Shown in pieces: positions 57,154-60,043 of a DNA stretch of 64,000 nt (within the stretch, counting starts at the first letter, position 1; each line of letters opens with the position of its first letter). The translations under genes were made by a program, and so were the position numbers. Origin of the DNA: Myxococcales bacterium (GTDB lineage: Bacteria; Myxococcota_A; Bradymonadia; UBA7976; UBA1532); the NCBI GenBank assembly GCA_002731825.1, contig PCCS01000012.1:62001-126000 (forward strand), given 5' to 3'. The notes under the pieces are model-generated. The model was not told the DNA's origin, did no database searches, and worked only from the letters and a program-made list of their open reading frames with translations.

Positions 57154-57638
57154 GTGGGTATAAAGTTGTTGACGGGCATATGGACGCGAGTGGCCACAAG
57201 TATGCTTTTGTTGTCGCTCGATTCAATCACTTCATTGTTGACCACCTCGTCAACGGGGCTGTCGATGCGTTGGTTAGACACGGATGCGCCGTCGGCGATA
57301 TTACGGTCTACAAGGTGCCCGGAGGCATAGAGATGCCCCTTGCAGCCCAGCGGATCGCTGACATGGGCCAAGTTGATGCCATCATTGCGTTGGGTGCTGT
57401 GATTCGGGGCTCGACGCCTCACTTCGACTATGTGGCGGGCGAAGCATCGACTGGTCTGGCGAAAATTGCTTTAGCGTCAAACATGCCCATCGCCAATGGC
57501 GTTCTGACCTGCGACACCATTGAACAAGCCATTGAACGCGCGGGTACAAAAGCGGGTAACAAAGGCGCGGAAGCAGCCCTTGCAGCCCTTGAAATGGTCA
57601 ATTTACTACGCGCCGTCCACGGTGAGTCAGAATCGTGA
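57150..57638 (+). CDS. ribH: 6,7-dimethyl-8-ribityllumazine synthase
   Basis: [61 protein letters not shown]. Confidence 0.95.
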
Positions 57639-58144
57639 TTTCTGGTCGTCGAACGGCTCGTGAAACAGCCCTCCTGGTTCTTTTTGCTGTCGATGTAGGT
57701 CAGACATCTGATTATCAAATGTCATTGGACCGCTTTATGGCAGTTTTTAAGGCTGATCGAGAGATTTTGACAGAGCTCTTAGGTCATTCAGATTATAATC
57801 CAGCTCCAGAGCAGCTATTACAACGAGCGATAAAGACTCTGGAGCCGGCCGGCAGTCATTGGCAATTTGTTGAAAGAATGGTCAAGGGCGTTGAAGCCCA
57901 TAGTAAAGCGATTGATGAATTAATCGAGCGATTCTCTTTGAACTGGAAAGTATCGCGAATGAGCAGGGTTGATCGTAATGTACTCAGACTGGCTGCTTAC
58001 GAATTGGCGTTTGAATCAGATGTCCCGAGTCGGGCAACGCTCAACGAGGCCATTGAGATTGCTAAGCGGTTTGGCTCGGAGGAGTCTGGTAAATTTGTGA
58101 ATGGCATTTTAGATAAAATCGCACAGGAATTTGGCCGAGTGTAA
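57635..58144 (+). CDS. nusB: Transcription antitermination factor NusB
   Basis: [73 protein letters not shown]. Confidence 0.93.
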
Positions 58145-58146
58145 TC

Positions 58147-58542
58147 ATGGGTAATTTGGCAACCGCGGCGGCAACATTAGATGGACTAAGGACGCGTCCG
58201 TGTGATCCTCTGATCCTCTGTGTCAACGTTGATGGCCGGCCCTTAAGAGGCATGACCGCGCAAGTCGATTGGCGTCTAGCCGGCATGCTATCTAAGATCG
58301 CTGCCAATGGGCTATCGGGGGACCTCCCGGTTTTAAGGCCGCCTCACAAGTTTCTGCCCTGCGGTCGGCTCATCCTTTTTCGGGCGGGTGCGTGTACACC
58401 TCGTGAGATGGCTAAGTTAGTCGGTGGATTAAACGGTCCACGACCGGGACTTTGCCCCCTGGATTTTGACTTTTCAGACGAAGAGGTCGAGCAGGCGTTT
58501 GGCGGTCAAGTGGTGATTTATCGAACCGAGACGGCGCGTTGA
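58147..58542 (+). CDS. Hypothetical protein; possible stand-alone M17 leucyl-aminopeptidase N-terminal-like domain
   Basis: 131 aa; DPLILCVNVDGRPLRGMTAQVDWRLAGMLSKIAANG loosely resembles Peptidase_M17_N; no catalytic domain. Confidence 0.5.
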   Translation: MGNLATAAATLDGLRTRPCDPLILCVNVDGRPLRGMTAQVDWRLAGMLSKIAANGLSGDLPVLRPPHKFLPCGRLILFRAGACTPREMAKLVGGLNGPRPGLCPLDFDFSDEEVEQAFGGQVVIYRTETAR

Positions 58543-58548
58543 TGTCCT

Positions 58549-59142
58549 ATGGCTCGTTTACGTAGAAGGCAGATTCGTGGTCCGCGTACGTTCCCTGGGA
58601 TTCGTCGAAAAGAGATCGTTGGGCTCGTCCTATTTCTGACCATCGTCAGTTTGTTGGCTTTCCAGCTTTTTATTGGCCAAGTCATGCGCGTTGCCAGTGA
58701 TACAATGTCACCCACTATCCAGGCAGAAGACGTCATATTGGTCTCGTACTCTGATGGTGACCCAGGTGACGTTGTCGTCGTCGATGACGGCCAATACCAG
58801 GTTCTTCGCCGACTCATCGGCGTGCCGGGAGATAATATTGAGCTGACGAACAAGGGGCCGCTTCGAAATGAAACGCGATTGGTCCCGGTTGGCCTTCAGG
58901 CTGAGTGGGTGACAACAACCGAGTTAGGTGACCGAGCGAAAGGTCTCCCGAATCGAAGCCGTCTTAACCTACGGCAAAACCGAATTGTGCAAGTGCCACC
59001 AGATTTCGTCTATGTCGGATGCGATCTCGCTCGCTTTTGCCGACGGTCGCCCATTAAAGGTCTCGTTCCTAAAGATCACCTGATGGGGCGTGTGATTAAT
59101 CAGTGGCCGGATCGTGCAGCCTTTATTTCGAAGACGCCTTAG
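58549..59142 (+). CDS. Signal peptidase I (S26)-like protein, likely catalytically atypical
   Basis: N-terminal TM; VASDTMSPTIQAEDVILVSYSDGDPGDVVVV and LRRLIGVPGDNIEL are SPase I boxes; the SxM catalytic Ser position is Thr, the Lys position is Arg. Confidence 0.8.
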   Translation: MARLRRRQIRGPRTFPGIRRKEIVGLVLFLTIVSLLAFQLFIGQVMRVASDTMSPTIQAEDVILVSYSDGDPGDVVVVDDGQYQVLRRLIGVPGDNIELTNKGPLRNETRLVPVGLQAEWVTTTELGDRAKGLPNRSRLNLRQNRIVQVPPDFVYVGCDLARFCRRSPIKGLVPKDHLMGRVINQWPDRAAFISKTP

Positions 59143-60043
59143 GTCTGACGATGTAGATCGTTAGGTAGGCGCGGGTGGCCGGCTGGATGAAGGTCCAGAG
59201 ACTTTCATGGCGCTTGAACGAGCTCAGCAGACATTGGGTGAAGGGGCGATTGACTAAACCATCGACAACAGCCTTGGGAGGGCGCACCTCACCGAGTACA
59301 CTGCTCTCCAGCTGAATACTTAATGCACCTTGAAGGGTCGATCCTCCATGTTGCATTTGAGTGGCGCATTCTTTTGCTATCGCCGTTGAAATGACTTGGA
59401 CCTTTTCGGCTTCCGCCTCACCTCGTTCAATTTTTAAGGTACTCGTCAAGCGTAAACCTGGGCGTCTATTGGCCCGACGTTTGTCTACATTGACGACGGC
59501 AATTTCAATCCCATGGCGCTCTAGTGCGATGCGCTTTGGGACCATGTCCTGACATGGGGCCGATGGTTGTCTGGCAGCAGACTTCGTTGGCGGATGTCCC
59601 GTTACAGACAATGTGAGTGTGTTTTTTCCATCCTCGAGACCAATGCCAAGTGCAGAGGGAGGCAGCGAGAAGTGTATATCTCGACTCGACCAATGAATTT
59701 GAACTTCATGACTGCGTTCGGCACTCGCAGCAAGCACCTTCGATGGACGGATGGCCAGTACGCCACGGCTTGCATCATAACCAGGGATCTCGAACTCATG
59801 GGCAGACAGTTGTGCGCTCATCGGCCCCTGTTTTGGGCATTTAGCGATACTGATGCCAGTCAGTGCATAGACGCAGAGAAACAGTGTGGATATACGCAAT
59901 GCTAACGTCCCGCGCTGGTCACAGCTTTGGTCAATTCGTTGTTCCAATCTAACCAACTGGATGCCCCGCATATTTCGAAAAAAAAAGATCCACTCAGGTA
60001 CGCGAGAAAAAACATCGGTTTGCTTTTGTGCCGGCTTGCACAT
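59123..60043 (-). CDS. Hypothetical protein with TM/signal segment; C-terminus weakly resembles AgmX/PglI C-terminal (TonB-like) domain
   Basis: LQGALSIQLESSVLGEVRPPKAVVDGLVNRPFTQCLLSSFKRHESLWTF; start uncertain (60043 or 59971). Confidence 0.55.
   Translation of the reverse strand: MCKPAQKQTDVFSRVPEWIFFFRNMRGIQLVRLEQRIDQSCDQRGTLALRISTLFLCVYALTGISIAKCPKQGPMSAQLSAHEFEIPGYDASRGVLAIRPSKVLAASAERSHEVQIHWSSRDIHFSLPPSALGIGLEDGKNTLTLSVTGHPPTKSAARQPSAPCQDMVPKRIALERHGIEIAVVNVDKRRANRRPGLRLTSTLKIERGEAEAEKVQVISTAIAKECATQMQHGGSTLQGALSIQLESSVLGEVRPPKAVVDGLVNRPFTQCLLSSFKRHESLWTFIQPATRAYLTIYIVRPKASSK

What the first reader, a model, noticed from the sequence alone, without database searches (positions are those of the whole stretch)
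58549..59142. Signal-peptidase-I-like protein with both catalytic residues swapped (Ser to Thr, Lys to Arg) and box E replaced
Seen: overall SPase I layout (N-terminal TM, ...SDTM-SPT..., GD-PGD-VVV, xRR-LIG-VPGD, VP-x-FVYVG...GLVP...GRV). Canonical SPase I has S-x-S-M-x-P with the Ser before Met as nucleophile, and KRxxGxPGD with Lys as general base. Here the Met is preceded by Thr (ACA, 58702-58704) and the Lys position is Arg (CGC, 58807-58809). The box-E region, usually GDNRxNSxDSR, reads GCDLARFCRRSP with a Cys pair. Inference: a pseudo-peptidase or a protease with altered chemistry, perhaps a chaperone, binding partner or regulator of a true LepB.
Basis: partly seen in the sequence, partly recalled or inferred. 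Interest (0 to 1): 0.7.

Follow-up and report, generated by a model that had tools for sequence, protein, structure and literature searches.

The report
Inactive signal-peptidase look-alike in Myxococcota
This gene encodes a membrane-anchored protein with the shape of the enzyme that cuts signal peptides off exported proteins, but every residue needed for cutting has been replaced in the same way across a whole bacterial family, so it most likely binds exported peptides or proteins without cutting them, like a known pilus-assembly helper in streptococci.

Summary
ORF 58549-59142 (+, 197 aa) is a real S26 (signal peptidase I) homologue, above the curated Pfam and NCBIfam cut-offs, with Thr52 at the Ser position, Arg87 at the Lys position and a Cys pair in box E. 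It is not a one-off: orthologs sit at the same place (ribH-nusB-orf131-S26, with a convergent envelope gene) across its uncultivated Myxococcota family. Against 38 canonical LepB sequences, all 15 members of the clade share one signature: Ser90 replaced by T, M, G, E, L or A; Lys145 to Arg 15/15; Gly272 to Cys 15/15; Ser278 to Cys 15/15. Gly272 and Ser278 pack against the catalytic lysine in E. coli SPase I. Because the nucleophile position is not conserved, a Thr/Arg protease is unlikely. Most likely it is a pseudo-peptidase that binds envelope peptides or proteins, as S. pyogenes SipA (its best structural match) is thought to do. Relatives also carry a canonical LepB beside lepA; its absence from this genome coincides with a missing lepA-lepB-pyr segment, so it is probably an assembly gap. 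New variant of a known kind: Gram-negative, with a Cys-pair signature I did not find described.

The parts
58549..59142 (+). pseudo-signal-peptidase I (S26 homologue), 197 aa; N-terminal Arg-rich tail, one TM helix about residues 20-42, extracytoplasmic SPase-like domain with a small cap
58702..58704 (+). Thr52 (ACA) at the position of the catalytic Ser (E. coli Ser90); not conserved among orthologs
58807..58809 (+). Arg87 (CGC) at the position of the catalytic Lys (E. coli Lys145); Arg in 15/15 clade members
59020..59022 (+). Cys158 at the position of E. coli Gly272 (box E); Cys in 15/15
59038..59040 (+). Cys164 at the position of E. coli Ser278 (box E); Cys in 15/15
58147..58542 (+). orf131, upstream gene with tight spacing, conserved between nusB and the S26 gene in most same-family genomes; no known family
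57635..58144 (+). nusB-like gene, part of the conserved ribD-ribBA-ribH-nusB-orf131-S26 gene order (named from sequence by inspection, not by a profile search)
59123..60043 (-). orf306, convergent gene overlapping the 3' end; predicted envelope protein; 5 of 10 orthologs match the AgmX/PglI C-terminal domain model weakly

Best explanation
A catalytically dead paralog of type I signal peptidase (pseudo-SPase), fixed in one family of uncultivated Myxococcota. It is anchored in the inner membrane by one N-terminal helix (Arg-rich N-terminus inside, domain outside). It keeps the SPase beta-fold and probably the groove that binds the signal-peptide C-region, but it cannot cleave: the nucleophile is lost, Lys is Arg, and the two residues that hold the Lys (Gly272, Ser278) have become a Cys pair, which probably forms a disulfide closing the former Lys pocket. 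It most likely works as a non-cleaving receptor or assembly chaperone for exported proteins, as SipA is thought to do in streptococcal pilus assembly. Shown: homology, register, conserved replacement signature, gene order, predicted fold. Inferred: lack of activity, disulfide, peptide binding, chaperone role; the client is unknown (the neighbouring convergent envelope gene is only a candidate).
For: S26 membership above cut-offs. Replacement signature in 15/15 clade members against 0/38 canonical LepBs, most of them from relatives' genomes. Nucleophile position not conserved, so no Thr chemistry is being kept. The clade forms one group separate from canonical LepB (SH-aLRT 90). Intact ORFs and gene order kept in the family despite only 24-29% identity of the orthologs to the window protein, which points to selection on the gene. 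Predicted model (pLDDT 78) matches SipA 4n31 best, then SpsB and E. coli LepB; the ortholog model (pLDDT 85) matches E. coli LepB. Precedent: SipA keeps the peptide cleft, lacks the Ser/Lys, shows no peptidase activity and is needed for pilus polymerisation (PMC4049620). PMC4049620 also states that Gly272 is adjacent to Lys145 and that Ser278 is involved in its stabilisation.
Against: No experiment. Thr is the commonest residue at the nucleophile position (7/15), so residual activity in some members is not formally excluded. Disulfide, peptide binding and client are inferred. The cap region of the window model is of low confidence (residues 116-140). No canonical LepB was found in this assembly, so its partner enzyme is not directly seen here.
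Confidence: 0.75

Rival explanations
1. An active protease with altered chemistry: Thr (or a box-E Cys) as nucleophile with Arg replacing Lys.
For: Thr is present in 7 of 15; Arg and both Cys are invariant; Cys158 lies at the position next to the catalytic Lys.
Against: Nucleophile position is also M, L, A, G or E in orthologs. Arg is too basic to act as general base at physiological pH (general chemistry). No known S26 enzyme works this way, to my knowledge.
Confidence: 0.06
2. It modulates the true LepB of the same cell, by competing for pre-proteins or forming a heteromer.
For: 11 of 12 same-family relatives carry both a strong canonical LepB match and this paralog; shared fold.
Against: The two genes are never neighbours in the loci read (lepA-lepB-pyr against ribH-nusB); no sequence feature points to an interaction.
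Confidence: 0.13
3. The organism has lost canonical LepB and this protein is its only type I signal peptidase.
For: Sole PF10502 match in this genome; the same-genus genome G001 also lacks canonical lepB and lepA.
Against: The assembly is 81.6% complete and the lepA-lepB-pyrB-carA-F11 segment is missing. In G001 the contig breaks inside pyrC, just before where pyrB-lepB-lepA should follow. The G001 ortholog has Glu at the nucleophile position.
Confidence: 0.04
4. A decaying or misassembled gene: the substitutions are errors or drift.
For: P0001 and G001 sit on long branches and have lost the DNR of box E.
Against: Same key substitutions in 15 sequences from different genomes; intact frames; invariant M, P, RR, C and C.
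Confidence: 0.02

Closest known systems
Streptococcus pyogenes SipA (pilus assembly pseudo-signal-peptidase; PDB 4n31)
   Same: SPase I fold, single TM anchor, small cap, both catalytic residues replaced, nucleophile position not conserved among homologues; best structural match of the model
   Different: SipA has Asp48/Gly85 and Asn/Arg at the Gly272/Ser278 positions and lies in a sortase pilus cluster of Gram-positive bacteria; here Thr/Arg plus a fixed Cys pair, beside nusB, in Myxococcota
Staphylococcus aureus SpsA (inactive SPase paralog of SpsB)
   Same: Inactive paralog lacking two conserved catalytic residues, beside an active SPase in the same genome (PMC12445088)
   Different: Gram-positive; no Cys-pair signature reported in what I read; gene context not compared
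Canonical LepB / signal peptidase I (TIGR02227, PF10502)
   Same: Fold, order of the conserved boxes, match above the curated cut-offs
   Different: Ser nucleophile and Lys general base are both absent; Gly272 and Ser278 replaced by Cys

Membership tests
Peptidase S26 / SPase I family (homology) | Curated profile score and SPase I fold | tested here: met
   PF10502 49.7 bits over 22.9; TIGR02227 61.1 over 47; Foldseek matches to SipA, SpsB and LepB with probability 1.00
Active signal peptidase I (LepB function) | Catalytic Ser before Met (box B) | tested here: not met
   Thr52; T, M, G, E, L or A in the clade, Ser in 0/15; Ser in 38/38 canonical
Active signal peptidase I (LepB function) | Catalytic Lys (box D) | tested here: not met
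   Arg87; Arg in 15/15, Lys in 38/38 canonical
Active signal peptidase I (LepB function) | Box E Gly272, Ser278, Asp280, Arg282 | tested here: not met
   Cys, Cys, variable, mostly Glu in the clade
Active signal peptidase I (LepB function) | Cleaves signal peptides | not testable with these tools
   needs an assay
Pseudo-SPase of the SipA kind | SPase fold with both catalytic residues lost in a conserved gene | tested here: met
Pseudo-SPase of the SipA kind | Sortase/pilus gene cluster context | tested here: not met
   context is ribH-nusB-orf131 with convergent orf306
Pseudo-SPase of the SipA kind | Non-catalytic assembly role | not testable with these tools
   needs deletion in a cultivable relative

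The most novel reading that the evidence does not exclude
The fixed Cys pair, exactly where Gly272 and Ser278 flank the former catalytic Lys, is a redox switch or thiol active site that gives the SPase fold a new chemistry, for example redox-gated binding or thiol exchange with exported proteins.
Probability: 0.06. Interest if true: 0.75.

Novelty: new variant of a known kind. Interest (0 to 1): 0.42.

Why it matters
The pseudo-signal-peptidases I found described are in Gram-positive bacteria. A family-wide one in Myxococcota, with a single coherent four-site signature (nucleophile lost, Lys to Arg, Gly and Ser to Cys), suggests that the SPase fold has been reused without cleavage in a Gram-negative lineage. 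It gives annotation pipelines a simple test, since TIGR02227 calls this protein 'signal peptidase I'. If a client protein is found, it becomes a way to study how a cleavage enzyme turns into a binding protein.

Tried and rejected
A Ser/Lys dyad in another register: no Lys near the right column. Thr protease: position not conserved. Genuine lepB loss in the genus: weighed by gene order; an assembly gap fits better. G001:C30 as a canonical SPase: it looks like the small nickel-SOD maturation protease beside a nickel SOD, named by inspection. The search for related loci with the window protein alone found nothing and with the full alignment could not be run; the narrower alignment gave named Myxococcota MAGs. 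Identity of orf131: no Pfam, NCBIfam or convincing PDB match; a resemblance to the leucyl aminopeptidase N-domain came from memory only and was not supported. Literature on S90T/K145R mutants: none in the held library.

Full report
Observation. The ORF at 58549-59142 (+) encodes 197 aa. It scores above the curated cut-offs of Pfam PF10502 (49.7 against 22.9 bits) and NCBIfam TIGR02227 'signal peptidase I' (61.1 against 47). The stated residues and codons are correct: Thr52 (ACA), Arg87 (CGC), Cys158 and Cys164 (TGC). The N-terminus is Arg-rich, followed by one hydrophobic helix (strongest 19-residue window starts at residue 23-24; helix 20-42 in the model); by the positive-inside rule the domain faces outwards (inference).

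Gene family. In same-family genomes the gene lies at the same place: ribH, nusB, orf131, the S26 gene, and a convergent gene (orf306). Not every element is visible in every locus, in part because some contigs are short. In the window, nusB, orf131 and the S26 gene are tightly spaced, as in an operon. All 12 other same-family genomes, one of them of the same genus, have an ortholog-like match. Named records found with the family profile are uncultivated MAGs, several of them titled Myxococcota or Myxococcales.

Catalytic positions. I aligned 15 clade members (13 of the family, and two further Cys-pair proteins from another family of the class) with 38 canonical LepBs. Ser90: T7, M3, G2, E, L, A against S 38/38. 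Lys145: R 15/15 against K 38/38. Gly272: C 15/15 against G 38/38. Ser278: C 15/15 against S 38/38. Met91, Pro93 and Arg146 are kept in all. The canonical set was itself picked by holding the SM, KR and GDNR motifs, so its uniformity at those sites (all but Ser278, Asp280 and Arg282) is partly by construction; the invariance within the clade is not. Spacing of the two Cys is the same (C-x5-C) in all 15. The profile alignment to solved SPases gives the same register. In E. coli SPase I, Gly272 is adjacent to Lys145 and Ser278 is involved in its stabilisation (PMC4049620), so the four replaced positions form one cluster: the nucleophile, the base and the pocket of the base. That is loss of the catalytic apparatus as a unit. 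A disulfide between the Cys is likely in the periplasm but was not shown.

Tree and structure. The 15 proteins form one group (SH-aLRT 90, quick tree) apart from canonical LepB; the window protein and its same-genus relative are on long branches, so their exact place inside is unsure. The predicted model (mean pLDDT 78; residues 116-140 poor) has as best PDB match SipA of S. pyogenes, a known inactive homologue, then SpsB and E. coli LepB. A model of the UBA1238 ortholog (pLDDT 85) matches E. coli LepB best, with SipA next.

Is there a true LepB? This genome (81.6% complete) has no other PF10502 match. In same-family genomes canonical lepB follows lepA, commonly in the order lepA-lepB-pyrB-pyrC-carA-F11-trmL (genes named by inspection apart from lepA). 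In this assembly lepA, carA and F11 are not found and the pyrB query finds only a weak transcarbamylase paralog. In same-genus G001 the contig with trmL-F11-carA-pyrC breaks off inside pyrC, before pyrB-lepB-lepA. The simplest reading is an assembly gap. That both genus members lack the same segment is noted as unresolved; G001's ortholog has Glu at the nucleophile position, so it could hardly replace LepB.

Mechanism. Best supported: a non-cleaving SPase-fold protein that binds peptides or exported proteins, working like SipA, which keeps the peptide cleft, shows no peptidase activity and is essential for pilus polymerisation. Client unknown. The convergent gene orf306 encodes a predicted envelope protein whose orthologs in part match the AgmX/PglI C-terminal domain; it is a candidate partner only by position.

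Novelty. Pseudo-SPases are known (SipA; SpsA of S. aureus, PMC12445088). I found no description of a Myxococcota one or of the Cys-pair signature in the held library, which is limited to open-licence papers. I rate it a new variant of a known kind.

Noticed in passing
L017:1189-2178, L056:2635-3945, L104:518-1513 and 26 further loci: A second degenerate S26 paralog family (29 rows, SH-aLRT 99), with an extra N-terminal hydrophobic region in the members looked at, spread over the same class: catalytic Lys lost in 29/29, Ser kept in only 7/29.
   Followed up: partly
L101:3203-5861 (Bdellovibrionales MAG): Three S26 genes in tandem; the first two canonical, the third with Leu for the catalytic Ser and Arg for the Lys.
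   Followed up: no
window 58147-58542 (+): orf131, a conserved gene between nusB and the pseudo-SPase, with no match in Pfam or NCBIfam and no convincing PDB match by sequence.
   Followed up: partly
window 59123-60043 (-): Convergent orf306 overlaps the 3' end of the finding by 20 bases; 5 of 10 orthologs match NF033768 (AgmX/PglI C-terminal domain, best E 4.8e-5), the window copy itself does not.
   Followed up: partly
G000 and G001 (same genus): Both assemblies lack lepA, canonical lepB and a clear pyrB; the G001 contig breaks inside pyrC exactly on that side.
   Followed up: yes
L049:4426-5244 (G001): A small S26-type protease with Ser and Lys intact directly beside what looks like a nickel superoxide dismutase gene, as expected for the nickel-SOD maturation protease (named by inspection).
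   Followed up: no
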